DNA from: a virus
Length of the DNA: 29,828 nt
Virus record (IMG/VR): IMGVR_UViG_3300044712_002337
Span: 146,564-176,391 of that record
Direction: 5' to 3' (one strand)
Below are positions 1,187 to 28,087 of this stretch, piece after piece (the stretch's first letter is position 1; each line of letters begins with the position of its first letter). The notes under the pieces were generated by a model. It saw only the letters and a program-made list of their open reading frames with translations. It was not told where the DNA came from and made no database searches. The position numbers and the translations under genes are program-made.

Positions 1187-1222
1187 GTGGGGGCAGAGCC
1201 CCCACATGTTAAAAGGGTGAAA
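1187..1222 (+). repeat. Hairpin + TTAAAAGGG repeat, copy 1
   Basis: A perfect 8-bp stem, GTGGGGGC/GCCCCCAC with loop AGA (1187-1205), is followed directly by ATGTTAAAAGGGTGAAA (1206-1222). It lies between two minus-strand genes, so the motif is antisense to transcription here. Confidence 0.8.
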
Positions 1223-1248
1223 TACCCACGGAACGGGCCGTCAGGCCC

Positions 1249-2385
1249 CTACTTCGCCAGCCCGAACGCCGCCGCCGACAGCGTCCCGAGGAGCGGCTTG
1301 GGGATGCCCTGCTCCATCTCCTCGGGCAGGTCGTTCAGGAAGTGGGCCGCCAGCTTCCGCATGGCCGCCCGCTTGCCCTGGGCCGACCCGTCGCCGTCGA
1401 ACGGCGGCTTGAACGCGGCCAGGCAGGCGGCCACCAGCTTGTCCGCGTCCTCGGCGTCCGGGGCGGACCGGCCCAGGCTGAGGGCCCGGTAGGCGGTCAG
1501 GGTGGCGGCCCCGACGAGCAGGCAGGCGGCGGCCACCGGGCCGTCCGGCGGGGGGCACAGCGGGCCGCCAATCTTGGCGAGCTCCGGACACCTTGCTTTA
1601 ACTGTGGCCGCCGCCCACGTCACGAAGTGGGCCGCCCGCTCGGCCGTCAGGTCCCCGCCCACCCGGTACAGCCCGCACAGGGAGGCGGCGGCGTCCGCCC
1701 CGCCGGCCCCGGCCAGGCTCTTGAACTTCAGGTACGCCTGGGTCCGCGAGTCGAACGCGATGTGCGTGCGGAAGGCGGACCCCGGGTCCTTGTTCAGGTG
1801 GCGGGCCACCTCGCGGGCGAACTCCAGCATCGGCTGCCGGGAGCGGGACAGCTCCCCCCGCACCAGCCGCATGACGCACAGCTGGTTCGAGTCCACCGTC
1901 TTGCCCAGCTGCAGGTTGAGGAAGTCCTCCTGCGGGTCGCCGTCCAGGTACACCGTCAGGGTGACCGGCAGGGCGTCCACCAGGGCGGCGGCGGCGTGCT
2001 CCTCGTCGGCGTGCAGGGCGGCCTTCAGGTCGCCCAGCCCGGCCAGCCGCTGCACCCCGTCCACCAGCTTGAGCGGGTCCCCCTCGGGCACCGCGACGGT
2101 CACCGTCCCGTCCGCGTTCCGGGTGACCGCCTGGGTGGTGACGCTGGCCGCCAGCGGGGCGGGGGTGTACCGGTGCTTGGCCACCGCCCGCATCAGCTTG
2201 CGGGCCTGGGCGTCGTGCCGCACCCGCTGCTCGCCCCGCCCGGTCAGCCCGTTGAACGGGTCCCCGCGGACCGCCCGGCGGGCGTCGGCGAACGGCACGG
2301 TGACGACCAGGAACTCGCGGCCGAGCACCCCCTCCGGGTCGAGCGACCAGCGGTGGGCGGGGGCGGTGAGGGTGTACGTGGACAA
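1249..2385 (-). CDS. DGQHR-like (DndB-family-like) protein
   Basis: The 378-residue protein carries LVDGVQRLAGL at residues 107-117, followed by a segment with the pattern LPVTLTVYLDGD (139-150) and FLNLQLGKTVDSNQ (155-168). This is the order seen in DGQHR-domain proteins, the group that includes DndB of the phosphorothioate DNA-modification systems. There the motif is DGQHRL, followed by a strand and an 'N..Q..VN' element. Here His of DGQHR is replaced (DGVQR). The start is TTG at 2385: an in-frame TAG lies a little upstream, no ATG or GTG fits, and a strong promoter (2419-2447) would place the transcript start about 25 bases ahead. Function in the phage is unknown. Confidence 0.75.
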   Translation of the reverse strand: MSTYTLTAPAHRWSLDPEGVLGREFLVVTVPFADARRAVRGDPFNGLTGRGEQRVRHDAQARKLMRAVAKHRYTPAPLAASVTTQAVTRNADGTVTVAVPEGDPLKLVDGVQRLAGLGDLKAALHADEEHAAAALVDALPVTLTVYLDGDPQEDFLNLQLGKTVDSNQLCVMRLVRGELSRSRQPMLEFAREVARHLNKDPGSAFRTHIAFDSRTQAYLKFKSLAGAGGADAAASLCGLYRVGGDLTAERAAHFVTWAAATVKARCPELAKIGGPLCPPPDGPVAAACLLVGAATLTAYRALSLGRSAPDAEDADKLVAACLAAFKPPFDGDGSAQGKRAAMRKLAAHFLNDLPEEMEQGIPKPLLGTLSAAAFGLAK

Positions 2386-2418
2386 CGGGGGACCCCGAGG
2401 AGGTGGGACTGTCCCCTA

Positions 2419-2447
2419 ATTATACTGGTAAATATACTATTCGTCAA
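2419..2447 (-). promoter_or_regulatory. Sigma70-type promoter for the DGQHR-like gene
   Basis: On the minus strand TTGACG (2447-2442) and TATAAT (2424-2419) are separated by 17 bases. This is a near-consensus promoter. It overlaps the 3' end of the small gene upstream, so the DGQHR-like gene has its own expression signal. Confidence 0.85.
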
Positions 2448-2646
2448 GGGCGGGCGGGTGGAAGGTGGCGCGGAACGTCACCCGCAGCTCCTCGACCGCG
2501 GCCGCCCGGCCGCGGGCGGCCAGCCGCAGGGCCTTGCGGACGGCCCGGTCGAAGTGCGGCGGGCGGAACTCGGCGACCGGCTCGGGCGGGCCGCCGTCGG
2601 CCGGCTCGGCGAACACCAGGTACACGGTCTCGGCGGCGTCGGGCAT
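2437..2646 (-). CDS. Hypothetical protein, 69 aa
   Basis: A small, mildly acidic to neutral protein beginning MPDAAETVYLVFAEPADGG and ending in a segment rich in Arg, Ala and aromatic residues. I do not recognise it. The ATG at 2646 has a very good ribosome-binding site (GGGGAGG, seven bases upstream). An alternative ATG at 2661 would absorb that site and is less likely. The -35 element of the next gene's promoter lies inside its last codons. The gene stands alone on the minus strand next to the large gene-free region, from which its own transcription would have to start; I see no convincing promoter there. Confidence 0.7.
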   Translation of the reverse strand: MPDAAETVYLVFAEPADGGPPEPVAEFRPPHFDRAVRKALRLAARGRAAAVEELRVTFRATFHPPALDE

Positions 2647-3400
2647 GGGGGACCTCCCCACCCGTTACCCCGCGCGGGCACCGCGCGACGCGCCCGATTC
2701 GTCCGGTTCGGTTTCCGAGGGCGCCGACCCGGGGGTGAGGGGGAGCGGGGTGCAGTCGGACGTCCTGTCCTCGCGCGGTCACCCGGCAAGCATTCGCTCG
2801 GCCATCCGGGCCTCGCGGCATAGTCTGGACCCCGGGAGGGTGATGTTTTCCCCTTTTAACATCCGTGCGCCAGCACGGCTAAGCCTGGACCGGGGGAAGG
2901 GGCCACCCCTTTAAGAAAAAAGCGCAGGCAGGGGGGCTACGGCTCACCGTGGTGAATTTATCGGTCGTCCGCGCGTAGTGCTCCCTTTCTCCTGTTTCCG
3001 CGGCATTTATAATCCGCCCCGCAGGTTGTTGGAGGGTCACCACTCCATCAACACCGCCCGCTTCCTCAGCGGGGTCCTCGGCGGCTCAATCGGCCTGTTC
3101 CGTCGCCGGACAGATTGTCCGGGTTCCGCTAGCAACGGGGGTTTCCCGCCAAACTGGGTTTGCTGGGGGGTTCGGAGTACCCCCCGGTTGGCCGGCCCTG
3201 TCGGTTCAGGACCTCGCTAGAACGGCTGGGACCACTCGGGCGCTCGTCCCTTTCGAGGCTGGTCCGCTCCCTCCGGCGGGAAGGCTACTCCCGCACACCG
3301 GCGCGAAATCGCAATGTGGCGTCTTCGGGGGTCTCCCCCAGCCTGCTCGCGCGGACAGGCAGAGTCAGTCTACCCCTGCCCATAAATTTTGTAAAGTAGG
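2647..3400. other. Gene-free, hairpin-rich region (possible structured RNA at 3020-3390)
   Basis: No reading frame here has protein-like composition. The region holds one hairpin repeat (2844-2878) flanked by an imperfect direct repeat (around 2817-2837 and 2877-2897, sharing CTGGACC). From about 3100 there is a dense row of hairpins: CCGGACA/TGTCCGG (3106-3122), CAAAC/GTTTG (3150-3162), GGGGGG/CCCCCC (3165-3185), an imperfect 7-bp stem around CCTG/CAGG (3194-3213), GGGAC/GTCCC (3228-3250), GCGGGA/TCCCGC (3276-3294), GGGGG/CCCCC (3327-3339) and GCCTG/CAGGC (3341-3360). A TATAAT lies at 3008-3013 on the plus strand, without a clear -35. I match no known RNA family (not tRNA, tmRNA or RNase P). 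A noncoding RNA is an inference. Confidence 0.4.
2844..2878 (-). repeat. Hairpin + TTAAAAGGG repeat, copy 2
   Basis: Read on the minus strand: hairpin CCGTGC/GCACGG (2878-2863), then ATGTTAAAAGGGGAAAA (2862-2846). The stem sequence differs completely from copy 1 while its position relative to the motif is the same. That argues that the stem itself is conserved rather than its sequence. Confidence 0.75.
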
Positions 3401-3433: not shown

Positions 3434-3712
3434 ATGGTCTACCCGCCTCCGTCCACCACCATCGACATTTGTGGCGTCAGCCACCACACGAACGCCCACT
3501 ACGCGGCCCTGGCCGAGCGGCTGGAAGACCTGGGCACAGCCCCGATTGACCACCTGACCGTCCGGCTCCCGTCCAAAACGTTCTTCCGGCAACTGACCGG
3601 GAAGGCGAAGGTGCCCACCTGTTACCGCGAGGTGTACGAACGGGTGGTGGTCGCCCTGCTCGGGCTGGACGTGGGGCACATCGACTACGAGTTGGCTGCG
3701 CCAACATTGTAG
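3434..3712 (+). CDS. Hypothetical protein, 92 aa
   Basis: I do not recognise this protein. It begins MVYPPPSTTIDICGVSHHTN and carries a helix-rich, mixed-charge remainder with no membrane segment. It has a short basic stretch, FFRQLTGKAKVPTCYREVYER, near residues 55-75, which could belong to a small DNA-binding or regulatory protein. ATG at 3434 is preferred over an in-frame TTG at 3401 because that TTG is the -35 box of the promoter at 3401-3428. No ribosome-binding site precedes the ATG, so translation would have to be leaderless. The stop TAG (3710-3712) shares its last base with the hairpin of repeat copy 3. Confidence 0.7.
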   Translation: MVYPPPSTTIDICGVSHHTNAHYAALAERLEDLGTAPIDHLTVRLPSKTFFRQLTGKAKVPTCYREVYERVVVALLGLDVGHIDYELAAPTL

Positions 3713-3744
3713 CGGGCTCCCGCCCGCATTTTAAAAGGTGAAAA
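3712..3744 (+). repeat. Hairpin + TTAAAAGG repeat, copy 3
   Basis: The hairpin GCGGGC/GCCCGC with loop TCCC (3712-3727) begins in the stop codon of the upstream gene. ATTTTAAAAGGTGAAAA (3728-3744) follows directly. This copy is sense with the flanking plus-strand genes. Confidence 0.8.
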
Positions 3745-3774: not shown

Positions 3775-3969
3775 ATGACCTTCGACGAAGCCCGCAAGAA
3801 GGCCCTGGACCGCCTGGACGCGGCGTACGCCAAGCTGTACGCCCTGGCCAAGGACCCGGCCTGGTGCAACGACCTGTGCCGGGAGTACAAGGAGGTGACG
3901 GCGGAGATGACCGGCGTGCTGGCCGACCTGCGGCGGCTGAACGAGGTGGCCCTGGTCGCCGGCAGGTGA
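3775..3969 (+). CDS. Small helical protein, 64 aa
   Basis: The protein begins MTFDEARKKALDRLDAAYAK and appears almost entirely helical, with charged heptad-like spacing, so it may form a small coiled coil. No known domain is recognised. ATG at 3775 has AAGGA about eleven bases upstream. It lies between repeat copy 3 and the ssb promoter. Its codon use matches the neighbours, and the frame holds no better alternative. A role as a small phage accessory protein near the replication genes is only positional inference. Confidence 0.7.
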   Translation: MTFDEARKKALDRLDAAYAKLYALAKDPAWCNDLCREYKEVTAEMTGVLADLRRLNEVALVAGR

Positions 3970-10403: not shown

Positions 10404-11050
10404 CGGTCATCCTGCCGGCCGCCGCCGCCCACCCGCGGGGCCCGGCCCCCACCCCGCGGTCGCTCCTGCGGGTCGGCCGGCGGACCCTGCTGGCCGCCCA
10501 GGTGGCGGCGGTGCGGGCGGCCCGCCCGGACGCCGACGTGGTGCTGGTGGCCGGGCACGGGTGGGAGCGGGTGCGGGCGGCCGTCCCGCCCGGGGTGCGG
10601 GTGGTGCGGAACGAGCGGCACGCCGACACCGGGAGCGGGCACTCGGTCGGGCTGGCCCTGCGGGCCAGCCGGGCGGACCGGTACCTGGTGGTGTACGGCG
10701 ACCTGCTGTTCACCCCCAAGCTGGTGGCCGACGCGCTGGTGCGGCCGGGGCCGGTGCTGGTGCTCGGCGGGCGGGGGGACCTGGGGGTGGCGCACGCCGG
10801 GGCGGCGGCCAGCCGGGTGGACTACGGGCTGCCCAGCCGGTGGTGCCAGGTGTTCGCCCTCGGCCCGGCCGAGGCGGCGGCGTTCGTCCGCTCGGCCGAG
10901 CGGCCGGGCGGGGAGCGGTGGGCGGCGCACGAGCACCTGAACGCGGCCATGGACGCCGGGGCGGCGTTCGGGGTGGTCCGCACGTCCGACCCGCCCCGCG
11001 AGCTGGACACGGCCAGGGACTTCCGGGAGCACGGCGTCACATGCGGGTAG
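10388..11050 (+). CDS. Nucleotidyltransferase-like (NTP_transferase fold) protein
   Basis: The 220-residue protein opens with VILPAAAA (7-14), then PRSLLRVGRRTLLAAQ (23-38), which stands where sugar-phosphate nucleotidyltransferases have PK.LLpvg.kpLL. It continues with DVVLVAGHG, NERHADTGSGHSVGLAL (75-91) and LVVYGDLLFTP (100-110), whose Asp is the usual metal ligand. This order fits enzymes that make an activated sugar or alcohol (NDP-sugar or CDP-choline type), although the Gly-x-Gly-x-Arg loop is altered. The substrate cannot be read from sequence. ATG 10388 is embedded in the previous gene's end and overlaps the next gene by 10 bases. It would supply donors for the glycosyltransferases here. 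Confidence 0.72.
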   Translation: MPPALTVILPAAAAHPRGPAPTPRSLLRVGRRTLLAAQVAAVRAARPDADVVLVAGHGWERVRAAVPPGVRVVRNERHADTGSGHSVGLALRASRADRYLVVYGDLLFTPKLVADALVRPGPVLVLGGRGDLGVAHAGAAASRVDYGLPSRWCQVFALGPAEAAAFVRSAERPGGERWAAHEHLNAAMDAGAAFGVVRTSDPPRELDTARDFREHGVTCG

Positions 11051-11691
11051 CCAACGTCCTGACCGACACCGACTACTGGCGGCCGGCGGTGAACGCCGGC
11101 GGGCGGTGGGCGCTGGCGGTGGCGGTCGACGCCCTGCTCGCCCGCGAGGGGGACGCCACGGCGGCCCGGGCGGCCGCCGCCCGCGGGGTGCCGCTGGTCA
11201 CCTACGCCGGGGTGGGCCGGCCCGCCCGCGGGCCGAAGGGCGAGCTCGTGCTGCGGGGGTCGGCGCCGGCGGTGGAGGTGGCCGCGTCGCCGTTCGCCGG
11301 GGGCGTGGCGTGCGTCGACCCGCCCGGCCCGTGGGTCGACCGGGCGCTGGCCGAGCTCGACCGGGTGGCCGTCGTCCGCAGCTTCGGGGGCGGCTCCGCC
11401 GCCCATTACCTGGGGGCGTTGCCCGCCGCCGTCGCCCGCGGCACCGTGCTGGCGGCCGACCTCTTGGTCACCGCCGACGAGGACCTGGCCTGCCTGGCGT
11501 GGGCCGGCGGGGTGCCCGTGCTGTACCCGTTCGCCCCGTTCGTGCCGGGGACGGAGTCCGGCCACTGCCCGGACGCGGCGCGGGCCGCGGACGTGTTAAA
11601 AGGGTTGACCCACGACCCGGACGGGGTCGCCGCCGCGATGACCCGTCACACCCGCTCCGCCCGCCTGGAAGAGGTCCTGAGCCTTGCCTAG
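11041..11691 (+). CDS. Hypothetical protein of the sugar operon, 216 aa
   Basis: It begins MRVANVLTDTDYWRPAVNAG and has an alpha/beta rhythm. Near the C-terminus is ADLLVTADEDLACLAWAGGVPVLYP, which resembles the donor domain of GT-B enzymes, where an acidic residue precedes a helix and 'G.Pvv'. It is much shorter than a full GT-B enzyme, so it may be a single-domain relative or half of a two-protein enzyme. Repeat copy 4 lies in frame near the 3' end and contributes the residues VLKGL. ATG 11041 overlaps the previous stop by 10 bases, and the gene's stop overlaps the next TTG. Confidence 0.65.
   Translation: MRVANVLTDTDYWRPAVNAGGRWALAVAVDALLAREGDATAARAAAARGVPLVTYAGVGRPARGPKGELVLRGSAPAVEVAASPFAGGVACVDPPGPWVDRALAELDRVAVVRSFGGGSAAHYLGALPAAVARGTVLAADLLVTADEDLACLAWAGGVPVLYPFAPFVPGTESGHCPDAARAADVLKGLTHDPDGVAAAMTRHTRSARLEEVLSLA
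11575..11608 (+). repeat. Hairpin + TTAAAAGGG repeat, copy 4 (inside a gene)
   Basis: The stem GCGGC/GCCGC (11575-11588) is followed after four bases by GTGTTAAAAGGGTTGA (11593-11608). The copy is in the sense direction and is read in frame as VLKGL. The match to the AT[G/T]TTAAAAGGG core is weaker at its first base. Confidence 0.55.
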
Positions 11692-12496
11692 CCTGCTCCG
11701 CGTCACCGGCGACTGGGAGGGGGTGGACGCCCACCCCCTGCTGCTGGCCGCCGCCCTGTCCGCCGCGTTCGACGGCGTCGTCGTCGAACAGCCGTCGGCC
11801 GCGTCCGCCGCCGCCCTGAAGGAGTACGCCCACGCCCTGCGGCCGGCCGACCGCCCGGACCCCGACGCCTTCGTCGTCCCCCTGCCCGTCACGGCCGTGG
11901 TGCACGAGGCGAGCCTCCGGCTCGCCGTCGAAACGCGGTCCCCGCCCGCCGTCGTCCCGGCCGACGCCCTCAGCCGGTACGAGTGGTACCGGTTCCGCAC
12001 CCGGCTGACGCAGAACGGCCGGCCGGAGGACCTGGTGGCGGTCGACGCGGGGGGGCTCCCCCCGCCGCCCCCCGGCCTGACCTACCTCACCCGCCCCGAC
12101 CCGCTCCGCCCGTCGTTCGCCCTCGCCCTGGCCGGCGCCGCCCTGGCGGCCGTCGGGCGGGACGCGGACGGGCGGACGTCGGTCACCCCCGTCGGCGGGA
12201 TTTTCCCTTTTAAAATGAATGAGGGGGTCGCCTACGACCCGGCGGAAGACCCCCGGGCGTGGCAGGCCGGGCTCATCTGCGAGCACGCCGTCCGCGGGTA
12301 CTGGGCGGCGAAGGCGGGGGACTTGCGGGGGCTGGGGGCGGCGGTCGACGCCGCCTGGGCGGTGGAGCGGGAGGCCCAGCCGGTCACCCCGGCGCGGACC
12401 CGGGCCGACCTGGCGTACGCCGCCGCCCGCGCCGCCGGCAGCCCCGGCGGCCGCCCGACCGCCGGCGGGCTGGTCACCCTGGAGGCCGCCCCGTGA
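11684..12496 (+). CDS. Hypothetical protein of the sugar operon, 270 aa
   Basis: I do not recognise this protein. It starts MPSLLRVTGDWEGVDAHPLL, with a possible Rossmann-like first half and, around residues 90-110, RYEWYRFRTRLTQNG. The second half is helical (AGLICEHAVRGYWAAKAGDL) and ends in an Ala/Pro/Gly-rich tail. The start TTG 11684 has GAGG upstream and overlaps the previous stop by 8 bases; no other start fits. A copy of the repeat lies in the middle on the opposite strand and adds the peptide IFPFKMN at about residues 173-179, so the protein carries a short inserted stretch that relatives may lack. Confidence 0.65.
   Translation: MPSLLRVTGDWEGVDAHPLLLAAALSAAFDGVVVEQPSAASAAALKEYAHALRPADRPDPDAFVVPLPVTAVVHEASLRLAVETRSPPAVVPADALSRYEWYRFRTRLTQNGRPEDLVAVDAGGLPPPPPGLTYLTRPDPLRPSFALALAGAALAAVGRDADGRTSVTPVGGIFPFKMNEGVAYDPAEDPRAWQAGLICEHAVRGYWAAKAGDLRGLGAAVDAAWAVEREAQPVTPARTRADLAYAAARAAGSPGGRPTAGGLVTLEAAP
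12200..12216 (-). repeat. TTAAAAGGG repeat core, copy 5 (inside a gene, antisense)
   Basis: Read on the minus strand it is ATTTTAAAAGGGAAAAT. It is embedded in a plus-strand gene and kept in frame. No strong hairpin adjoins it. It stands out as an AT-rich 17-mer in very GC-rich coding sequence. Confidence 0.65.
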
Positions 12497-12945
12497 GGCA
12501 GGTGGCCGTGCTCGTGTCCGACCTGACCTCGGAGGTGGCGCGGCGGGCGGCCGAGGCGGTCGCCGCGCTGGCGGCCGACCCCGCCTGGGACTGCGCCCTG
12601 GTCGCCCCCGGCGGCCGCCCCCCGGCCCGGGCCCCGGTGCTCGACCCGGCCGACCTGTGGGGGTACCGCGGGGTGGTGGTGTCCACCGACCTCGACACCC
12701 TCGCCCTGGCCGCCCGCCTGCCCGCCCCCGGCGGGCGGGTGCACTACGCGTGGGACTGGCGGTGGGCGGGCGACGCCCTGGCCACCCGCGGGCGGCTGGC
12801 GGCCGCCCGGGCGGTGTGCCGCACCCCCGAGCACGCCGACCGGTTCGCCGCCGCCTGGGGGCTGCCCGTCTGGGCGACCGCCTACTACCCCGACCCCCGC
12901 ACCTTCCACCCGGCCGCGACCGCGGCCGACCCCCTATGGACCTGA
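12493..12945 (+). CDS. Glycosyltransferase-like short protein, 150 aa
   Basis: The protein starts VRQVAVLVSDLTSEVARRAA, an N-terminal Rossmann strand and helix. Later it has RVHYAWDWRWAGDALATRGRL and a stretch around residues 110-145 with CRTPEHADRFAAAWGLPV followed by YYPDPRTFHP. This second part resembles the linker of GT-B enzymes, where 'cRS..ha..f...w' precedes 'i.ndfd...F'. The C-terminal donor-binding domain is absent, so it is either a truncated enzyme or an acceptor-domain subunit. GTG 12493 overlaps the previous stop (GTGA), and its end overlaps the next ATG by 10 bases. Confidence 0.6.
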   Translation: MRQVAVLVSDLTSEVARRAAEAVAALAADPAWDCALVAPGGRPPARAPVLDPADLWGYRGVVVSTDLDTLALAARLPAPGGRVHYAWDWRWAGDALATRGRLAAARAVCRTPEHADRFAAAWGLPVWATAYYPDPRTFHPAATAADPLWT

Positions 12946-13634
12946 CCGAGGCGAAGCGCCGCTACCTGGCCGGGGAGAGCCCGGCCGCCATCGCGGAGGC
13001 GTTCGGCACCTACCCGAACGCCGTCCGCCGGGCCCTGCTCGCCCTGGGGGTGGAGCTCCGCGGGCGGCGGGCGGCGGCGGCGGCCGCGTACCGCACCGGC
13101 CGCAAGGGGCGGCCGTCCGGGCGGCGGGAGCCGGGGGCGGTGCGGGCCGGGGCGGCGAAGGCGGCGGCCGGGTGGGCGGGGAAGGACGCCGCCCAGAAGG
13201 CCCGGCACGCGGCCATGAGCGGGCGGGCGCTGCAGATGCGGACCCCGCAGGAGCGGTACAAGATGAAGAAGAAGGCGGCCCGCAACTGCGGGCGGGCCGG
13301 GGCCCGGGGGACGCGGATGGCCGCCCACCTGCTCGGCCGGCTGCCCGAGGCGGGGGTGCCGGCGGCGCGGGCGGTCCCGCCGGCCGACCTGCTGCTGGCC
13401 GACGGCACGGCGGTGTGCGTGGACGGGCACTACCGGCGGGCCCGGCCCGCCGGGTGGACGGAGAAGAGGAACGCGGCGGTGCTGGCGAACTGCCCGCGGC
13501 TGGTGGTGCTCCTGGCCCCGCGAACATTTACTATTTTAAAAGGTGAAAGGCTGTTGACTTCCCTCGTCGACTTTATAAAATGCGGGAAGCACCTGTCCCA
13601 CCCCGTGAGCGTGGTCCCCGATGTCGAAGGCTAG
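12936..13634 (+). CDS. HTH protein with basic middle and possible nuclease-like C-terminus
   Basis: Residues 2-45 (DLTEAKRRYLAGESPAAIAE and onward) form a clear helix-turn-helix of the resolvase/transposase style, so it likely binds DNA. A very basic, Ala/Lys/Arg-rich middle follows. A C-terminal part has DLLLADGTAVCVDGHYRRAR then WTEKRN and a strand LVVLL. This faintly recalls Vsr/DUF559-type endonuclease cores, but I cannot confirm catalytic residues. The last 50 or so residues are coded by repeat copy 6 and by the promoter of the next gene, suggesting a secondary extension of the frame. ATG 12936 overlaps the previous gene by 10 bases. Confidence 0.65.
   Translation: MDLTEAKRRYLAGESPAAIAEAFGTYPNAVRRALLALGVELRGRRAAAAAAYRTGRKGRPSGRREPGAVRAGAAKAAAGWAGKDAAQKARHAAMSGRALQMRTPQERYKMKKKAARNCGRAGARGTRMAAHLLGRLPEAGVPAARAVPPADLLLADGTAVCVDGHYRRARPAGWTEKRNAAVLANCPRLVVLLAPRTFTILKGERLLTSLVDFIKCGKHLSHPVSVVPDVEG
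13532..13550 (+). repeat. TTAAAAGG repeat core, copy 6 (inside a gene end)
   Basis: TATTTTAAAAGGTGAAAGG lies within the 3' part of the HTH gene and is read in frame as ILKGER. It ends four bases before the -35 box of the promoter for the next gene. Confidence 0.7.
13554..13581 (+). promoter_or_regulatory. Sigma70-type promoter for the gene at 13621
   Basis: TTGACT (13554-13559) and TAAAAT (13576-13581) are separated by 16 bases. An overlapping TATAAA at 13574-13579 is a possible alternative -10. The promoter sits inside the 3' end of the HTH gene, about 40 bases before the next ATG. Confidence 0.7.
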
Positions 13635-14460
13635 GAAGAGCGTGGTGTCGGCCGACATCCTGGACGCGACCGTGCCGGTCGCGGAGCCGGCCGCCCCCGG
13701 GGCGGACCGTCCGGCCGGGTCCGCCCCGGCGGAGCGGGCCCGCACCCCGGCCGACCCCGACTGGACGGAGTGGGTGCTCGACCAGCTGGACCCGGGCGAG
13801 GTGTACGAGACCGAGCCGAAGGCGGACGGGCGGGTCACCCGCCACCCGACGGTGGCCGGCCTGCGGCGGTTCGTCGAGGCCAACTTCGCCGTCCTGGACA
13901 GCGTGCCGGCGGTCGAGACGACGTGGGGGCCGGGACACGCCGTGCCGACGGTGACGGTCACGCACACCCTCCGCGTGCGGCGGACCGGCGAGGCGGAGGT
14001 GAAGACCTTCGGCGGGGCGGCGTGCGTCGGCCCGCACAACCTGAAGGACATCGGCGGGGCGGTGTACCCGGGGGAGACGGCCGACACCCGCGCGCGGGGG
14101 CGGGCGTACAGCAACCTGCTCGGCCTGGCCACCTGCACCAAGGAGGAAATCGCCGCCCAGACGGTGCCCGCCCAGGTGCGGGTGTCGGACACGGTCACCC
14201 CGGCCCAGGTGCTCCAACTTGCAAACCTTTGCAAGACTAATAATTTAAATGTGCGCAAATTTATCAACTGCGGGGAACTGAAGTATTCCCAGCCGACGGA
14301 CATCCCGCGGGCCAAGTTCGAGCGCATGTTCGAGGCACTCAACCGCCTCCAGCAGGCCGCCCACCGGACGGCCATGGGCGAGGACGGGCTGACCGACAAG
14401 GACAAGGAGTTCCTGGCGGCGCACGGGCCGTGGGACCCGGACTGGCGGACGTCGGCCTGA
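13621..14460 (+). CDS. Phage protein of unknown function, possibly ssDNA-annealing/recombination
   Basis: The first 45 residues are Ala/Pro-rich and probably disordered. A folded part then runs from DWTEWVLDQLDPGEVYETEP to the end. Around residues 140-175 it has GGAVYPGETADTRARGRAYSNLLGL. This is reminiscent of the 'AxADTRALGRAL' helix of Rad52/Erf-type annealing proteins and of other phage recombination proteins. The likeness is short, so I give it as a possibility only. It has its own promoter (13554-13581), overlaps the preceding gene by 14 bases, and ends one base before repeat copy 7. The neighbouring zinc-ribbon gene would suit a DNA-metabolism block together with ssb. Confidence 0.75.
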   Translation: MSKARKSVVSADILDATVPVAEPAAPGADRPAGSAPAERARTPADPDWTEWVLDQLDPGEVYETEPKADGRVTRHPTVAGLRRFVEANFAVLDSVPAVETTWGPGHAVPTVTVTHTLRVRRTGEAEVKTFGGAACVGPHNLKDIGGAVYPGETADTRARGRAYSNLLGLATCTKEEIAAQTVPAQVRVSDTVTPAQVLQLANLCKTNNLNVRKFINCGELKYSQPTDIPRAKFERMFEALNRLQQAAHRTAMGEDGLTDKDKEFLAAHGPWDPDWRTSA

Positions 14461-14494
14461 GCGGGGCTCCGCCCCGCATGTCAAAAGGGTAAAA
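14461..14494 (+). repeat. Hairpin + TTAAAAGGG repeat, copy 7
   Basis: The hairpin GCGGGGC/GCCCCGC with loop TCC (14461-14477) begins immediately after the stop codon of the upstream gene. ATGTCAAAAGGGTAAAA (14478-14494) follows directly. Confidence 0.8.
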
Positions 14495-14524
14495 TCAGTC
14501 CACTAACACCGAGCGGAGCGAACA

Positions 14525-14896
14525 GTGAAGGCGACCAAGCGGTACGGCACCATCCTCATCGAGGTCGAGGGGGCCACCCAGAAAGACCTGTTCCGCGAAA
14601 TCGCCCGGGCCGACGAGCTGCTGGGCGAGAGGTGCTGCGGCCAGTGCCAGAGCGAGGACCTGCGGTTCGTCCACCGGGAGAACGACGGGAACGAGTTCTT
14701 CGAGCTCGTCTGCCAGGCGTGCGGGGCGTACCTGTTCTACAGCCAGATCAAGGCCAAGCCGGGCACCCTGTTCCCCAACCGCAAGATTATCGCCAGCGGC
14801 CCGGAGGCGGGCAAGCCGCACGCCAAGAAGGGCGAGTACGACAAGAAGTACCGCGGGTGGACCAAGTACCGCGGCCCGCGGGGGGACGACGAGTGA
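14525..14896 (+). CDS. Phage zinc-ribbon protein
   Basis: The 123-residue protein begins MKATKRYGTILIEVEGATQK and contains C38-x2-C41 and C63-x2-C66, a treble-clef-like zinc ribbon. A basic C-terminal tail follows, with KKGEYDKKYRGWTKY. From memory this is a well-spread phage zinc-ribbon family, often located near single-strand DNA-binding or recombination genes; its exact function is not established. GTG 14525 has GGAG eight bases upstream. The stop overlaps the next GTG (GTGA). The zinc ribbon probably binds DNA or a partner protein, but this is inferred from the fold and tail only. Confidence 0.85.
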   Translation: MKATKRYGTILIEVEGATQKDLFREIARADELLGERCCGQCQSEDLRFVHRENDGNEFFELVCQACGAYLFYSQIKAKPGTLFPNRKIIASGPEAGKPHAKKGEYDKKYRGWTKYRGPRGDDE

Positions 14897-16889: not shown

Positions 16890-17819
16890 TTAAGCCCCGT
16901 TCTCCAGGTAGTCCGTCACCCGGGCGAGCGGCGGGCCGAGGTCGGCCGGGGCGGCCACCGCCCGCACCTCCCCCTTCCGCTTCAGCCGGGCCACCCCCAG
17001 GTGGGTGAGGCTCACCTGCTCCGGCCCGGTGCCGGTGACCGCCAGCTCGCCCCGCCCCTTGAGCGGGACGCCGCACTCGTGGCAGTGCTTCCGCACCTGG
17101 GCGGCGAAGTCGGCCATCGGCCGCCGCCACCACCCCGGCTCGGCCGGGACGCCGGTGTCCGGGTAGCCCGGGTCGTACTGGTGGAGCATGCTCTGGGCCC
17201 CGGCCAGCTCGCAGAACCAGGCCCGCAGCCCGCCGCGGAACACCCCCACCAGCGCCGACCAGCGGCGGTTCAGGTCGCACCGCGCGATCATCCCCCACCG
17301 GGTGGCCTCGTCCGGCACCACGTCCCGCAGGGCCACGAAGCACGGGGCGTGCCGCGAGTCCCGGTCCAGGCCGAACGGGCGGGCCTCCGGCCAGTCCCGC
17401 CGGAACTCGTCGAACGCCTCCCACGACAGGTGGACGTTCAGGTTGCTCACGTCCGGGTTGAACGTCTCCCGCATCAGCTTCCCGTGCCCGCGGGGGTGGT
17501 TGCACCACAGCCCCCGCTGCTCGAACGGGAAGTGGGCCCGGAGGATTTCGCACAGGACGGGGAACTGGGGGTGGAGGCTGGGGTTGCCCCCGAAGCAACC
17601 TATAACACCTGGATAACCTTTCAACGAACGGCAGGCGGCCTCGAACTGGTCGGGGGTCATGACGTTCGGCTTGCCCGCCAGGTTCGACCCCTGGGTGCAG
17701 TGCCGGCAGGCGTTGTCGCACGCCCGGGTGACGTGAATCTGAATCGTCCCGTCCCGCCACGTGCCCGGGCGGGGGGTGCCGGGGGCGGTCAGCCGGGCCA
17801 GCGCCTGGTCTTCCGTCAT
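16890..17819 (-). CDS. Radical SAM protein with probable auxiliary Cys cluster
   Basis: Radical SAM enzymes use a 4Fe-4S cluster to cut S-adenosylmethionine and start radical chemistry. The 309-residue protein has CxxxCxxC at C34/C38/C41 (TRACDNACRHCTQ) and GGNPSLHP at 77-84, a variant of the SAM-binding GGE/GGEP motif. C-terminal cysteines at C181, C203, C246 and C249 (WFCELAG, HCHECG) look like ligands of a second cluster, as in SPASM-type enzymes. The substrate is unknown; modification of a peptide or a sugar is possible. The ATG at 17819 overlaps the stop of the GT8-like gene (ATGA), coupling the two. Confidence 0.85.
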   Translation of the reverse strand: MTEDQALARLTAPGTPRPGTWRDGTIQIHVTRACDNACRHCTQGSNLAGKPNVMTPDQFEAACRSLKGYPGVIGCFGGNPSLHPQFPVLCEILRAHFPFEQRGLWCNHPRGHGKLMRETFNPDVSNLNVHLSWEAFDEFRRDWPEARPFGLDRDSRHAPCFVALRDVVPDEATRWGMIARCDLNRRWSALVGVFRGGLRAWFCELAGAQSMLHQYDPGYPDTGVPAEPGWWRRPMADFAAQVRKHCHECGVPLKGRGELAVTGTGPEQVSLTHLGVARLKRKGEVRAVAAPADLGPPLARVTDYLENGA

Positions 17820-18985
17820 GTCCGCTCCTCCATCGCGGTGAGCAGCCGCAGGAGGGCCGACCGCCAGCCGTGCGCGTCGGTCGCCCACGGCTGCACCAGG
17901 TTCACCTGCGACACCCCGGCCAGGTGGACGAACTGCGGGTCCACCGCCGCCGCCCGGGCCCAGGTGCGGTCCGCCCACCACTGGTAGTTGTATTTCTCTT
18001 CCAACAGTTTAATCTCGTAGTTGTTCCGCTCGATGTTCCACTGGACGACGCACTGCTCGGCCACGTGGTGGGGCTTGCCCGTGGCCGGGTCGACCAGGAA
18101 GGCCCCGGCCGGCGGCCGCCACACGTCCGGGGTGCCCCGGTCCCACACCACCACCCCGCTGTTCAGCACCCGGGTCGGGTCCGGGGAGCCGGTCTGGCGG
18201 AGCACGTGGAACAGGTACCCGGGGTCGTCCACCAGCGGGCGGTCGTCGTGGATGCCGACGCTCCCTTCGGGCACGAGCCGGAACAGGTCGGGGGCGGACC
18301 GGCGGACCACCACGTCGGCGTCGACGAACAGGCAGCGGGCCCACAGCTCGGTCAGCTGGTGCAGGCGGAACTTGTCCCCCAGCGGGTACCCCGGGGCCCG
18401 CGGGGCGTCCCCGGTGAGGGCGACGAAGTCGGCCCCCACCCGCCCGGCGTACGCCCGCAGCAGGGGCTCGGTGACGGCCAGCATGTCCCGCCCGGCCGGG
18501 CCGACGGCGACGGTCGCCACCACCCGGTCCGAGCGGGGGGCGGGCAGGTCGGGGTCGGCGTAGTCGTAGGGCGGGGGCTCCGCCCCCGCGGCCCCCGGGG
18601 GGTGAGGGCGTTCCCCTTTTAAAATTGGGGGCTCCGCCCCCAAAGCCCCCTCGGCCGGGGCGACCTGGTACCCCGAACACGCCGGCCCGCACGCCGGCGC
18701 CTTCGGGCCGGACCCGCAGGAGCGGCAGGTGGTGACGACCGGGAGCGATTTGCCCAGGGTCGGGTGCCCGCAGGCGAAATGGGCGTCCGCCCGCAGCGGG
18801 TTGAACCCCGCCCCGGCGACGACCCCGGCCGGGAGCGGGTCCTCCCCCCGGAACCGGCACGTCGCGTCGGCGGGCCGCGGGGCGGCGGGGACCGCCGCCG
18901 GTTTCGCCCGCACCGGCACGCCGGCCAGGCACCACTTGCAGTTTTCCGGCTTGACCCCGGGCGCGCATCGGTGGGAGCGGCTCAT
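17816..18985 (-). CDS. GT8-like glycosyltransferase with Cys-rich N-terminus
   Basis: The C-terminal 240 residues have the GT-A pattern of GT8-type enzymes: GDKFRLHQLTELWARCLFVD followed by ADVVV gives DAD at 222-224, the metal-binding DxD. VLNSGVVVWDRG then follows, a usual mark of this family, with later acidic and His residues. The first 105 residues hold about ten Cys (CKWC, C43, CGHP, CRSCG, CGPAC), probably one or two zinc-binding units. Residues about 111-142 are coded by a composite copy of the repeat (ILKGERPHPPGAAGAEPPP), an inserted linker. ATG 18985 overlaps the stop of the tail-hub-like gene (ATGA). The acceptor is unknown. Confidence 0.85.
   Translation of the reverse strand: MSRSHRCAPGVKPENCKWCLAGVPVRAKPAAVPAAPRPADATCRFRGEDPLPAGVVAGAGFNPLRADAHFACGHPTLGKSLPVVTTCRSCGSGPKAPACGPACSGYQVAPAEGALGAEPPILKGERPHPPGAAGAEPPPYDYADPDLPAPRSDRVVATVAVGPAGRDMLAVTEPLLRAYAGRVGADFVALTGDAPRAPGYPLGDKFRLHQLTELWARCLFVDADVVVRRSAPDLFRLVPEGSVGIHDDRPLVDDPGYLFHVLRQTGSPDPTRVLNSGVVVWDRGTPDVWRPPAGAFLVDPATGKPHHVAEQCVVQWNIERNNYEIKLLEEKYNYQWWADRTWARAAAVDPQFVHLAGVSQVNLVQPWATDAHGWRSALLRLLTAMEERT
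18571..18643 (-). repeat. Composite hairpin + TTAAAAGGG repeat, copy 8 (inside the GT8-like gene)
   Basis: On the minus strand: hairpin TTGGGGGC/GCCCCCAA (18643-18625), core AATTTTAAAAGGGGAA (18626-18611), then a second perfect hairpin, GCGGGGGC/GCCCCCGC (18589-18571). The whole unit is read in frame and codes an approximately 30-residue linker. Confidence 0.8.
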
Positions 18986-22738: not shown

Positions 22739-22774
22739 CCCCGGGGCCGGGCCCCGGGGTGTTAAAAGGGGGAG
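22739..22774 (+). repeat. Hairpin + TTAAAAGGG repeat, copy 9
   Basis: A 9-bp stem, CCCCGGGGC/GCCCCGGGG (22739-22759), leads into GTGTTAAAAGGGGGAG (22759-22774). It lies between two minus-strand genes, antisense to them, just after the virion-protein stop codon. Confidence 0.75.
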
Positions 22775-22780
22775 TGCCGG

Positions 22781-23443
22781 TCAGGCGTAATCGCACGTCA
22801 TGAAAAAGGCGGCCTGTTTGTTGCCGGCGGACACCGGCTTGACCGACGCCGCCAGGTACCAGTCGTGGCGGGCGCTCACCGTGCCCGCCCCGCTCGGGCG
22901 GGTGCCGCTCACCCCCGGGCTGGTGGTCAGGGGCATGCCGCTGGCGCTCACCCCGCTGGAGAAGTACTTCCACGCGTGCTGCCCGCTCACCAGCGGGGTG
23001 CCGGGCCCCCCGCTCCCCCCGGCCACCTGGCTGGGGTTCAGGTGCGACACCTCGTACACGGCCACGTCCAGGCCGGTGGCCGCCGGGGGGGTCCCGGTCG
23101 TGACGTCGCCGACCCCGTCGTAGACGAACAAGGTGGCCGACGCCACGCTCACCGGCCCGTCGAACGTGCCGCGGATGTTAACGGTCGCCTGAACGTTTGG
23201 CAAATGGGACAGGGGGATGGGGGTGCCGGTCGGGCCGACCACCACCCCGGTCGGGCTGGCGTGCTTGGCGTTCCACGCCTCGGCCCCGGCGACCGCCCCC
23301 GTCTCGTCCGAGACGTACGTCCGCGAGTTGTACTGGCCGACCGGGAGGAGGGCGCCGAACCCGGCCGGGCCGAAGAACCCCAGGCCGGTGTTGGCCGGCA
23401 CCAGGGTGACGTTGCCGGCGTAAAAGTCGATGCTCGCGGCCAC
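22781..23443 (-). CDS. Virion structural protein (tail-associated, marine-phage type)
   Basis: The 220-residue protein contains GLGFFGPAGFGALLPVGQYN, then TYVSDETGAV, then IPLSHLPNVQATVNIRGTFD and SATLFVYDG. From memory this order (G-F-G, Y-x-x-x-T-Y, L-x-x-(I/L)-P-N, N-I-R, then a strand with 'l.iYD') recurs in structural proteins of uncultured marine siphoviruses and of cyanophages. The precise part of the particle is not known to me. There is no signal peptide. GTG 23443 is the assumed start; the purine-rich core of repeat copy 10 (AAAGGGGGAAA) lies upstream and may serve as its ribosome-binding site. The large tail protein follows. Confidence 0.8.
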   Translation of the reverse strand: MAASIDFYAGNVTLVPANTGLGFFGPAGFGALLPVGQYNSRTYVSDETGAVAGAEAWNAKHASPTGVVVGPTGTPIPLSHLPNVQATVNIRGTFDGPVSVASATLFVYDGVGDVTTGTPPAATGLDVAVYEVSHLNPSQVAGGSGGPGTPLVSGQHAWKYFSSGVSASGMPLTTSPGVSGTRPSGAGTVSARHDWYLAASVKPVSAGNKQAAFFMTCDYA

Positions 23444-23449
23444 GGGCGG

Positions 23450-23466
23450 TTTCCCCCTTTCAACAT
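23450..23466 (-). repeat. TTGAAAGGG repeat core, copy 10
   Basis: Read on the minus strand it is ATGTTGAAAGGGGGAAA. A GC-rich stretch with a weaker stem adjoins it at 23467-23484. It sits 7 bases ahead of the GTG of the virion-protein gene, so its G-run may act as a ribosome-binding site. Confidence 0.65.
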
Positions 23467-23484
23467 GCGGGGGCGGGGCCCCAC

Positions 23485-23524
23485 CGGGCGATTACCCCGC
23501 CGCCCGATTTTAAAAGGGAAAATT
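23485..23524 (+). repeat. Hairpin + TTAAAAGGG repeat, copy 11
   Basis: The stem CGGGCG/CGCCCG (23485-23506) leads directly into ATTTTAAAAGGGAAAATT (23507-23524). Copies 10 and 11 point away from each other and fill almost all of the gap between two minus-strand genes. Confidence 0.75.
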
Positions 23525-23735
23525 ATCCGGCCGCCCGCCGGCTCACCTGGCCGAGCACCCACCGGTGGTCGGCGAAGAACTGGGCGTCCGGCAGGGCGAG
23601 CAGGTCGGCCACCCGGCGGCGGAACGCGTCCGGGTCGGCCGGGTCGACGGGCACGGCCTCGGCGACCGCCCGGACCAGGGCCATCCGCTGGTGCATGTCG
23701 GCGAGCACCTCGGCGGCGCGGGGGGTGAGTATCAC
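23523..23735 (-). CDS. Hypothetical protein, 70 aa
   Basis: A small helical protein starting MILTPRAAEVLADMHQRMAL and ending FADHRWVLGQVSRRAAG. I recognise no domain. The last part loosely resembles the 77-residue gene at 15164-15397. GTG 23735 has a good ribosome-binding site (GGAGG about nine bases upstream). The stop touches repeat copy 11. It is the first gene on the minus strand after the divergent gap at 23736-24085, and the virion-protein gene follows it. Small genes of this kind before tail genes can be assembly chaperones, but nothing here proves it. Confidence 0.7.
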   Translation of the reverse strand: MILTPRAAEVLADMHQRMALVRAVAEAVPVDPADPDAFRRRVADLLALPDAQFFADHRWVLGQVSRRAAG

Positions 23736-26840: not shown

Positions 26841-26894
26841 CGGCGAGTCCGTGCGGAAAGACGGGGGCGGGCCACCCCGGCATTATCAGTATAA

Positions 26895-26923
26895 ATTATA
26901 CTATTTTAAAAGGGAAATGTCAC
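26895..26923 (-). promoter_or_regulatory. Sigma70-type promoter for the HNH gene
   Basis: On the minus strand GTGACA (26923-26918) and TATAAT (26900-26895) are exactly 17 bases apart. The core of repeat copy 12 forms the spacer. The -35 box overlaps the stop of the upstream small gene. Confidence 0.75.
26902..26918 (+). repeat. TTAAAAGGG repeat core, copy 12
   Basis: TATTTTAAAAGGGAAAT lies between the HNH gene and the small gene upstream. In place of the usual GC stem, a small AT-rich palindrome (AGTATAA-A-TTATACT, 26889-26903) precedes it. Confidence 0.7.
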
Positions 26924-27132
26924 GCCACCGCCAGCGCGGACAGGGCCGCCGTCACCTCCTCCTCGGTGTCGTACTCGTACACCAGCCCGCTGGCGCAATA
27001 CGTGCGATACACCTCCTCCCCCTCCTCGGGGGTGAGCAGGAACGGGACGCCCGCCAGACAGCGGCGGGCGAGCACCTCTAAATGCGCCGGAATAGCGTTG
27101 CTTTCGCCGTTAACGGGGGGTAAAGTCGACAT
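26920..27132 (-). CDS. Hypothetical protein, 70 aa
   Basis: A small acidic protein starting MSTLPPVNGESNAIPAHLEV and ending in YEYDTEEEVTAALSALAVA. The middle (RRCLAGVPFLLTPEEGEEVY) looks like a helix, turn, helix. I recognise no family. ATG 27132 has AGGAG six bases upstream. The gene diverges from the XRE regulator gene at 27269, and the operator-like repeats at 27208-27240 lie between, so the regulator may control both. The stop overlaps the -35 box of the HNH gene. Confidence 0.7.
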   Translation of the reverse strand: MSTLPPVNGESNAIPAHLEVLARRCLAGVPFLLTPEEGEEVYRTYCASGLVYEYDTEEEVTAALSALAVA

Positions 27133-27207
27133 GGTAGCTCCTGCCGGGGCGGGGTCTTGTCCACCCTGCCCTGGAGACGGGTTTGCCGAGCGGGGACGCC
27201 GGCTGCC

Positions 27208-27240
27208 TAGCGGATGTGCTTAAGTTAGCCAATGTGCTAG
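27208..27240. promoter_or_regulatory. Possible operator between divergent genes
   Basis: ATGTGCT occurs twice (27214-27220 and 27232-27238), 18 bases apart. The whole is bounded by CTAGC (27208-27212) and GCTAG (27236-27240), an imperfect symmetric arrangement as expected for a Cro/CI-type dimer site. It lies about 30 bases ahead of the XRE gene. Confidence 0.35.
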
Positions 27241-27268
27241 GAATCGTCCATCCCGATTCGGAGCAAAA

Positions 27269-27553
27269 ATGTGCGCGGCCCTCACTTTGTCCAAGAAACC
27301 TAAACGCGGGGCGGCCGGTACGGGGGAGCCCAGCCTGTTCGGCCGGCACCTCCGGCGGTTCCGCCTGGCCGCCGGGTGGAGCCAGGAGAGGCTCGGGGGG
27401 GAGGCCGGCGTCCACCCGGTGACCATCTCCCGCATCGAGTCGGGCCACATGGCCGAGCCGGGGTGGGACAACGCCCACAAGCTGGCCGCCGCCCTGGGGC
27501 GGTCCTTGGACGAGTTCGTCGCCCCTTTTTCGGATGACCCCGATGTCTCTTGA
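27269..27553 (+). CDS. XRE-family (Cro/CI-type) transcription regulator
   Basis: The 94-residue protein has a compact HTH of the XRE family at about residues 24-84. FGRHLRRFRLAAGWSQERLG is helix 1-2, GEAGVHPVTISRIESGHMAE the recognition helix and its flank, and HKLAAALGRSLDEF the last helices. No protease-like or dimerization domain follows. It would bind a short operator and repress or activate nearby genes; the symmetric repeats just upstream are the obvious candidate. ATG 27269 has GGAG a few bases upstream. It overlaps the next gene by 20 bases. The phage may use it in a lysis-lysogeny or early-late switch, but this is inferred only from the family. Confidence 0.88.
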   Translation: MCAALTLSKKPKRGAAGTGEPSLFGRHLRRFRLAAGWSQERLGGEAGVHPVTISRIESGHMAEPGWDNAHKLAAALGRSLDEFVAPFSDDPDVS

Positions 27554-28049
27554 ATCCCCCGTGCGAGTGGCCCGCCCCCGCTGGCGGACAGTCGTCGCGT
27601 ACGCCGCCCTCGCCCCGGCCGTCGGGCTGGCGGCGCTGTTTGCGGTCATTGTGGTTCGGTCCTACCGCCCGGCGGTGAGCGAGGAGGTGCCCGCCCGACT
27701 GGTGAGGCAGGGGTTCGCCGTCACCCACGCCGAGTGGGGCGCGAAGAGCCGGTTCCCCGCCACCCTCCACTTCCTCCACCTGTTGTCACCCCCCGACGCC
27801 CGGGGCGACCGCTACGTCATGCGGGTGACGTGGACCCCGACCCAGGTGTGCGTGCTGTGCTGCCGCCAGGGGGCCGGGCGGGAGGGCTACGCCCAGGACC
27901 CGTGGACCCTCACCGTGGCGTACCCGCGGCACGCCTTCCCCGGCCGCGTCGACCCCGACGCCGGGGGCGGGGGCGAGGTGGACGCCCGCACCCGCGAGGC
28001 CATGATGGCTCATTGCGACCGGGTACTCTTGGCCGTGCGGGGCGAGTGA
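27534..28049 (+). CDS. Single-pass membrane protein, 171 aa
   Basis: The protein has a basic N-terminus (VRVARPRWR), one membrane helix (TVVAYAALAPAVGLAALFAV, about residues 19-40) and a soluble part of about 130 residues outside or inside the membrane. This part has strands such as RYVMRVTWTPTQVCVLCCRQ and a Cys pair. I recognise no family. ATG 27534 lies within the end of the XRE gene; ATG 27543 is an equally good alternative, and neither has a clear ribosome-binding site. It is probably cotranscribed with the regulator. Immunity or superinfection exclusion would suit a membrane protein next to a repressor, but that is speculation. Confidence 0.7.
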   Translation: MTPMSLESPVRVARPRWRTVVAYAALAPAVGLAALFAVIVVRSYRPAVSEEVPARLVRQGFAVTHAEWGAKSRFPATLHFLHLLSPPDARGDRYVMRVTWTPTQVCVLCCRQGAGREGYAQDPWTLTVAYPRHAFPGRVDPDAGGGGEVDARTREAMMAHCDRVLLAVRGE

Positions 28050-28051
28050 CA

Positions 28052-28087
28052 CTTCTCCCTTTTAACATCGCGGGGCTCTGCCCCGCG
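28052..28087 (-). repeat. Hairpin + TTAAAAGGG repeat, copy 13
   Basis: Read on the minus strand: 8-bp stem CGCGGGGC/GCCCCGCG with loop AGA (28087-28069), then ATGTTAAAAGGGAGAAG (28068-28052). It fills the gap between two convergent genes. Confidence 0.8.

What the first reader, a model, noticed from the sequence alone, without database searches (positions are those of the whole stretch)
1187..28087. About 13 copies of an undescribed hairpin + AT[G/T]TTAAAAGGG[G/T]GAAA repeat
A near-constant 17-base AT-rich core is preceded, in most copies, by a short perfect GC-rich hairpin that touches it. Stem sequences differ (for example GTGGGGGC, CCGTGC, GCGGGC, CGGGCG), while their place relative to the core is kept, which argues that the stem is selected as structure. 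The copies are on both strands regardless of gene direction, and several begin right at a stop codon (3712, 14461). The T-run lies on the wrong side for an ordinary terminator. It could be a REP-like mobile repeat, an RNA processing or packaging signal, or a binding site for a phage protein. I know no named family with this form.
Basis: partly seen in the sequence, partly recalled or inferred. Interest (0 to 1): 0.75.

Follow-up and report, generated by a model that had tools for sequence, protein, structure and literature searches.

The report
Two-way hairpin repeat between phage genes
A large phage with a very GC-rich genome carries about 80 copies of a short AT-rich signal joined to a small hairpin, set at gene starts pointing one way and at gene ends pointing the other way; no described family fits it and what it does is still unknown.

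Summary
The window is the end of a 176,391-bp phage record. That record holds 79 tight copies (85 covariance-model matches) of hairpin + ATKTTAAAAGGGDRAAA. The core is far above chance (11 in the window, 0.02 expected). A stem of 6 bp or more touches the core in 52 of 79 copies, against 0-1 of 79 at shifted positions and 3% at random intergenic positions. Stem sequences differ while pairing is kept.

New findings: about half the copies lie with transcription just before start codons (S), where the core doubles as a Shine-Dalgarno site. About half lie against it, directly after stop codons (A). Orientation alternates along the genome (z = 4.4). Loop sequence is tied to the element strand, not the mRNA strand, which points to recognition of DNA, or of one strand.

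The element is absent from 16 related phage records, and no copy was found by exact-pattern scans of IMG/VR or of 84,980 prokaryote species. REP/MITE, IS200/605 end, ordinary terminator and sense promoter do not fit. The nearest kinds are mycobacteriophage SAS/ESAS repeats and stoperators. Most likely it is a direction-specific gene-boundary signal acting on transcription and read by a phage-specified factor; that mechanism is inferred, not shown.

The parts
1187..1222 (+). Copy 1: hairpin (8 bp, 3-nt loop) + core 1206-1222; class A (against the flanking minus-strand genes, core 26 nt after the stop of gene 1249-2385)
2846..2878 (-). Copy 2: hairpin (6 bp, 4-nt loop) + core; start-facing, 24 nt before ATG of ORF 2444-2821
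   Evidence: start read from sequence
3712..3744 (+). Copy 3: hairpin beginning at the stop of the gene ending at 3712 + core; class S-long, next start at 3775
12200..12216 (-). Copy 4: core ATTTTAAAAGGGAAAAT without hairpin, inside gene 11684-12496 (reads IFPFKM in the gene's frame)
13533..13549 (+). Copy 5: core without hairpin, near the end of called gene 12936-13634, about 70 nt before ATG 13621; followed by a sigma-70-like TTGACT-17-TATAAA site
14461..14494 (+). Copy 6: hairpin (7 bp, 3-nt loop) directly after stop at 14460 + core; class S-long, followed by motif M3 (14509-14523) and start at 14525
18609..18642 (-). Copy 7: hairpin (7 bp, 3-nt loop) + core, inside called gene 17816-18985
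22741..22775 (+). Copy 8: hairpin + core GTGTTAAAAGGGGGAGT; class A, after the stop of minus gene 22781-23443
23450..23484 (-). Copy 9: imperfect hairpin + core; class S-short, 6 nt before start of minus gene 22781-23443
23507..23523 (+). Copy 10: core with no good stem; class A, overlapping the stop of minus gene 23523-23735; copies 9 and 10 share one gap
26888..26919 (+). Copy 11: AT-rich hairpin AGTATA-AAT-TATACT + core; class A, abutting the stop of minus gene 26920-27132
28052..28087 (-). Copy 12: hairpin (8 bp, 3-nt loop) + core; between convergent genes, abutting the stop of plus gene 27534-28049
11593..11609 (+). Doubtful copy: GTGTTAAAAGGGTTGAC inside gene 11041-11691; weak core, possibly chance

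Best explanation
The repeat is one asymmetric gene-boundary element of this phage lineage: a perfect 6-8 bp hairpin with a mostly 3-nt loop, free in sequence, touching a fixed 17-bp site ATKTTAAAAGGGDRAAA. I think it is read at the DNA level by a sequence-specific, probably phage-encoded, factor and acts on RNA polymerase in one direction. A polymerase entering from the hairpin side makes the hairpin just as it reaches a 9-bp stretch of A/T pairs (one G allowed) occupied by the factor, and it pauses or stops, like a stoperator assisted by a hairpin. Copies along transcription (S) sit in the 5' leader of a gene, and their AAAAGGNG tail also serves as the Shine-Dalgarno site. Copies against transcription (A) sit directly after stop codons and would stop antisense polymerases. 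Shown here: the anatomy, the two classes, the alternation, the strand-tied loop and the fit of the S core to a Shine-Dalgarno site. Inferred: the factor, DNA-level reading, and action on elongation.
For: 79 copies, 35 along and 33 against co-directional genes. The core is as conserved in A copies (AAAAGGG, with GGG in 32/33), where mRNA holds only the complement, as in S copies, so the site is recognised whichever strand becomes mRNA. The loop has a central purine on the element strand in 35/44 copies (p = 1e-4), in both classes (A 18/20, S 14/20). Stems have almost no G-U wobble (one in S, one in A) and a similar number of A-C mismatches, which does not favour RNA-only selection. Tails face a gene boundary 0-9 nt away, or about 24-38 nt in S-long. 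Orientation alternates: 58 runs against 39.1 expected, z = 4.4; S/A in co-directional runs 43/56 against 28.3, p = 5e-5. S-short cores give longer Shine-Dalgarno pairing (5.7 against 4.3 nt on average). Within the element, the hairpin is followed by an A/T-rich stretch and then GG, the layout of a hairpin-assisted pause (sequence; general knowledge). In all three convergent gaps that hold a copy, its tail abuts the stop of one gene.
Against: No binding factor has been identified. S cores overlap the ribosome-binding site of the next gene, an odd place to stop polymerase. The phage's own terminator-like sites, long stems followed by T5-6, look different. No source of antisense transcription was shown for A copies to act on. 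S tails vary more than A tails even where Shine-Dalgarno use is not needed (S-long 4/13 GGG against A 32/33, p = 6e-6), so the two classes may not be the same site turned round. About a third of copies lack a perfect stem. All rests on one genome.
Confidence: 0.3

Rival explanations
1. DNA-level site not tied to transcription: a phage architectural, replication, priming or packaging factor binds the core next to an extruded hairpin; orientation matters only for pairing with the neighbouring site.
For: Both orientations occur almost equally, neighbours alternate, stems are perfect Watson-Crick palindromes, the loop bias is tied to the element strand, and most copies are intergenic (core centre in a called gene in 11 of 79) although 85% of the record is coding.
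Against: Tail-to-gene-boundary distances are tight, and S cores double as Shine-Dalgarno sites, so gene expression is involved at least for S.
Confidence: 0.22
2. RNA-level leader and trailer signals: S is a start-associated hairpin + RBS as in SAS/ESAS phages, A is a post-stop hairpin protecting 3' ends; S and A cores may also anneal in the mRNA.
For: S sits exactly at ribosome-binding sites, A directly after stops; M2 promoter-like sites lie mostly outside tail-facing intervals (1 of 13).
Against: No covariation between neighbouring S and A cores; the A core is conserved as the complement of the S core and its loop bias follows the element strand, not the mRNA strand.
Confidence: 0.2
3. A promoter (a hairpin promoter in the style of N4 virion RNA polymerase, or the target of the phage sigma factor at 141324-141860 of the record) firing in the element direction.
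For: AT-rich site in a 70% GC genome; S-long copies lie about 25-30 nt before starts, a good leader length; N4 promoters are variable hairpins with 3-nt loops next to a short AT-rich segment (general knowledge); a phage sigma-like protein exists.
Against: Half the copies would fire antisense. A separate motif (CTAYYTTATAAAA, 13 copies, all intergenic and sense-oriented) behaves as a promoter should. No single-subunit RNA polymerase was found (weak negative).
Confidence: 0.15
4. Intrinsic terminator with an unusual tract, overlapping the next gene's RBS in S copies.
For: Hairpin followed by ATTTTAAAA; a few unrelated AT-rich phage contigs have hairpin-ATTTTAAAAGG before a start.
Against: Position 3 is G in 16/35 S and 12/33 A copies, which breaks the T-run; half the copies face against transcription; the conserved GGGDRAAA lies beyond any U-tract; more typical terminators are present elsewhere.
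Confidence: 0.08
5. Mobile or REP/MITE-like repeat spread by a transposase.
For: Many intergenic copies in both orientations; the phage carries five TnpB genes.
Against: Stem sequences differ in many copies (29 arms in 54); no Y1 transposase; tnpB flanks share no ends with the repeat; positions are fixed relative to starts and stops.
Confidence: 0.04

Closest known systems
SAS/ESAS repeats of Cluster K mycobacteriophages (PMC3203893) and Cluster EF Microbacterium phages (PMC7302621)
   Same: Short asymmetric, over-conserved, Shine-Dalgarno-like repeat at a subset of start codons, about half (Cluster K) with inverted repeats just upstream; absent or very rare in host genomes
   Different: There 10-19 copies, almost all in one orientation, with inverted repeats of conserved sequence for which the Cluster K authors found little support as mRNA hairpins. 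Here about 80 copies, half turned round at stop codons, and the hairpin is kept by structure with free sequence
Stoperators of Cluster A mycobacteriophages (L5; PMC9283540)
   Same: Asymmetric sites repeated in short intergenic gaps, direction-dependent, thought to act on elongation
   Different: Stoperators follow the direction of transcription and have no hairpin; here half the copies oppose transcription; no repressor identified
17-bp palindromes (7-3-7) of Cluster O mycobacteriophages (PMC4351075)
   Same: More than 30 copies, dyad of 7-3-7, many in short intergenic regions, function unknown, absent from host
   Different: There the palindrome sequence is invariant and there is no adjacent core; here the palindrome varies freely and the adjacent core is conserved
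N4 virion RNA polymerase hairpin promoters (from general knowledge)
   Same: Variable-sequence stem, 3-nt loop, next to a short AT-rich segment
   Different: N4 has a few promoters, all sense; the purine-centred loop is, as I recall, on the template strand there and on the other strand here; no such polymerase found here

Membership tests
REP / BIME / MITE | Stem sequence conserved between copies | tested here: not met
   29 different 3' arms in 54 stems; every pair column changes on both sides (on copies chosen for perfect stems)
REP / BIME / MITE | A Y1 (RAYT/TnpA) transposase or transposon ends that share the repeat | tested here: not met
   PF01797 absent from the record; tnpB flanks share no sequence with the element
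Intrinsic terminator | Uninterrupted T-run directly after the stem | tested here: not met
   G at position 3 in 28/68 co-directional copies
Intrinsic terminator | Placed along transcription after genes | tested here: not met
   33 of 68 co-directional copies point against transcription
SAS/ESAS | Asymmetric repeat at the ribosome-binding site of start codons | tested here: inconclusive
   Met by S copies, 21 within 15 nt of a start with Shine-Dalgarno pairing 5.7 nt on average; not met by the 33 A copies
SAS/ESAS | Nearly all copies in one orientation | tested here: not met
   47 plus, 32 minus; S and A almost equal
Stoperator | Site orientation follows transcription | tested here: not met
   35 along, 33 against
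Stoperator | Bound by a phage repressor that halts elongation | not testable with these tools
   No protein-DNA data; no repressor searched for by name
N4-type hairpin promoter | Hairpin with 3-nt loop and central purine | tested here: inconclusive
   3-nt loop in 42/54 perfect stems; central purine 35/44 on the element strand, but N4, as recalled, has it on the template strand
N4-type hairpin promoter | Cognate single-subunit RNA polymerase in the phage | tested here: inconclusive
   PF00940 gave no match but also none in its controls; PHROGs gave no polymerase for the large proteins scanned
Known RNA family (Rfam) | Match above gathering score | tested here: not met
   0 matches in the window

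The most novel reading that the evidence does not exclude
A two-way punctuation system: a phage marks the start and the end of its gene blocks with the same asymmetric site in mirror orientation, each read together with a neighbouring hairpin whose sequence is free, so that structure and sequence are recognised jointly on one DNA strand and adjacent sites work as inverted pairs.
Probability: 0.25. Interest if true: 0.8.

Novelty: new variant of a known kind. Interest (0 to 1): 0.58.

Why it matters
Dispersed short repeats in phage genomes (SAS/ESAS, Cluster O palindromes, Cluster EG repeats) were reported without a known function. This element is the most numerous case I met and carries more information: both orientations, strict placement at starts and stops, alternation, and a hairpin kept by compensatory change. 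If it is a boundary signal, it would show how a large phage partitions more than 200 closely packed genes, and its anatomy makes the hypotheses separable by RNA-end mapping.

Tried and rejected
Rfam search of the window: nothing. Polymerase- and terminase-based relatives in IMG/VR: hundreds found, the best at about 40-45% identity. The element is absent from the relative loci searched and from 16 whole records, while the same model finds 85 matches in this phage. Exact-pattern scans of IMG/VR returned AT-rich chance hits and a few hairpin-ATTTTAAAAGG sites before starts in unrelated phages. A scan of 84,980 species genomes with CCCRCATKTTAAAAGGGNNAAA found nothing; the polymerase profile there gave only Lokiarchaeota and Clostridiales MAG contigs.

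RNA panhandle between S and the next A: no covariation. Mobile cassette bounded by S and A: GC content and interval lengths do not differ between tail-facing and hairpin-facing intervals, and neighbouring cores are no more alike than shuffled. IS200/605 ends: no Y1 transposase, no shared tnpB flanks. T7-like RNA polymerase: none found, but the control was empty too. Literature search for planctomycete phage genomes gave nothing, so the host guess (Gemmataceae) was not tested.
Full report
WHERE IT IS. The window is positions 146,564-176,391 of a 176,391-bp IMG/VR virus record, 70% GC overall and 73% in the window. It is a real tailed-phage genome: portal, large terminase, DnaE-type polymerase in two genes, DnaB-like helicase, ribonucleotide reductase, ThyX, PhoH, single-strand binding protein, RecA/UvsX, integrase, RNA ligase. 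I fetched the rest of the record and called genes with my own codon-score method, so gene edges are good estimates, not annotation. In the window a GC-by-frame plot of 6.4-15 kb supports most of the calls checked.

The core with up to 3 mismatches occurs 11 times in the window against 0.02 expected. Over the whole record I count 79 tight copies. A covariance model built from 21 copies finds 85 matches at E<=0.1 in the record (the lowest-scoring ones are hairpin-only). The hairpin is not an accident of composition: a perfect stem of at least 6 bp ends 0-1 nt before the core in 52 of 79 copies, but 1 of 79 on the other side of the core, 0-1 of 79 at positions shifted by 45-100 nt, and 3.1% at random intergenic points. 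Stem sequence varies freely: 29 different 3' arms in 54 stems, including AT-rich AGTATA-AAT-TATACT at window 26888. All seven pairs change on both sides in the 21-copy alignment, with 42 doubly changed cells against 12 in shuffles (those copies were chosen for perfect stems, so this describes rather than tests). The loop is 3 nt in 42 of 54 stems.

TWO CLASSES. Between co-directional genes, 35 copies lie along transcription (S) and 33 against it (A). S cores end 0-8 nt before the start codon (S-short) or about 24-38 nt before it (S-long); A cores begin, in the gene's sense, mostly 0-9 nt after the stop codon. In element terms the tail faces the nearer gene edge and the hairpin faces the inside of the gap. 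S-short tails pair with the 16S 3' end better than average starts (5.7 against 4.3 nt), so there the core doubles as a Shine-Dalgarno site. A tails are GGG in 32/33 copies; S tails are GGG in 9/21 (short) and 4/13 (long), p = 9e-6 and 6e-6. The S-long result is not explained by Shine-Dalgarno use and is a caution against treating S and A as identical.

ORIENTATION ALTERNATES. Along the record the strands of successive copies alternate more than chance: 58 runs, 39.1 expected, z = 4.4. Within co-directional runs S and A alternate at 43 of 56 steps against 28.3 expected, p = 5e-5. From about 77 to 100 kb the order is SASASASASAS. Tail-facing and hairpin-facing intervals have the same length (medians 1132 and 1434 bp). 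Neighbouring cores are no more alike than shuffled ones, which speaks against a duplex between S and A in one mRNA and against recent cassette duplication.

DNA OR RNA. The A core is strongly conserved although mRNA carries only its complement. The loop is biased on the element strand in both classes: central purine 35/44, p = 1e-4; A 18/20, S 14/20; TGC/TAC/AGA/GGA rather than their complements. Near-perfect stems show one G-U in S and one in A against two C-A in S. These three points favour recognition of one DNA strand or of double-stranded DNA over recognition of the mRNA. They do not prove it; numbers of mismatches are tiny.

INTERNAL CONTRASTS. Two other motifs behave as ordinary sense-oriented signals. 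M2, CTAYYTTATAAAA (13 copies), is always intergenic and sense-oriented, sometimes as a -35-like TTGACT with a -10-like hexamer 16 nt on, for example before the tRNA-Met. M3, GCGAGCGGAGCGARC, sits 1-4 nt before start codons in roughly 18 genes, and some S-long or degenerate copies carry it. Terminator-like sites with long stems and T5-6 also exist. The two-way use of the present element is therefore peculiar to it.

DISTRIBUTION ELSEWHERE. Phages related by polymerase are plentiful (427 candidates, best about 45% identity), yet the model finds nothing in 16 whole records. Pattern scans of IMG/VR give only AT-rich chance hits and a few hairpin-ATTTTAAAAGG sites before starts in unrelated phages. 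A scan of 84,980 species genomes is empty. The element looks private to this lineage; very close records may have been withheld by the tool.

WHAT IT MOST LIKELY DOES. I commit, at 0.3, to a direction-specific gene-boundary signal acting on RNA polymerase and read by a phage-specified factor, with the S copies also serving translation. The geometry (hairpin, then about nine A/T pairs, then GG) is that of a hairpin-assisted pause, and the nearest precedents for direction-specific intergenic phage sites are stoperators (PMC9283540). A DNA-architectural or replication role (0.22), an RNA-level leader/trailer role (0.2) and a promoter role (0.15) are the main rivals. No step beyond anatomy, placement and strand bias is shown.

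COMPARISON. It works most like SAS/ESAS (PMC3203893, PMC7302621) on the S side: a Shine-Dalgarno-like, over-conserved repeat at starts with inverted repeats upstream. It differs in copy number, in the mirrored half at stop codons, and in a hairpin kept by structure, which the Cluster K authors considered and found little support for. Cluster O palindromes (PMC4351075) share the 7-3-7 dyad but have invariant sequence and no core. It fails tested defining features of REP/MITE, intrinsic terminators, stoperators (orientation) and SAS (orientation), so I file it as a new variant of dispersed phage repeats, not as a member of any of them.

Noticed in passing
G000 record 45795-46778, 58187-59431, 88555-89649, 100035-101153, 108992-110074 (outside the window): Five TnpB/Cas12f-like genes in two groups (67% identity within one, 42-47% within the other, about 24-31% between), conserved D-E-D-like motifs by eye, no TnpA and no shared ends.
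   Followed up: partly
G000 record 117255-119753 and 122158-124179: DnaE-type polymerase split into two genes about 2.4 kb apart; the C-terminal part carries an HNH-containing, intein-like insertion.
   Followed up: partly
G000 record; window copies include 149962 (window 3399) and 150550 (window 3987): Motif M2 CTAYYTTATAAAA, 13 copies, all intergenic and sense-oriented: a likely phage promoter element.
   Followed up: partly
G000 record, e.g. window 14509-14523: Motif M3 GCGAGCGGAGCGARC placed 1-4 nt before about 18 start codons, sense only: an SAS-like start-associated sequence, sometimes downstream of the hairpin repeat.
   Followed up: partly
G000 record 141324-141860: Phage-encoded sigma-like protein (Sigma70_r4_2), a candidate reader of one of these motifs.
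   Followed up: no
G000 record 117050-117242: tRNA-Met behind an M2 promoter, preceded by a head-to-head S and A copy with no gene between them.
   Followed up: no
many gaps, e.g. G000 record 95154-95202 and 73896-73930: Stop codons often followed by a GGGGC-NNN-GCCCC hairpin and then an unpaired CCCC, with or without the core: a possible separate post-stop structure.
   Followed up: no
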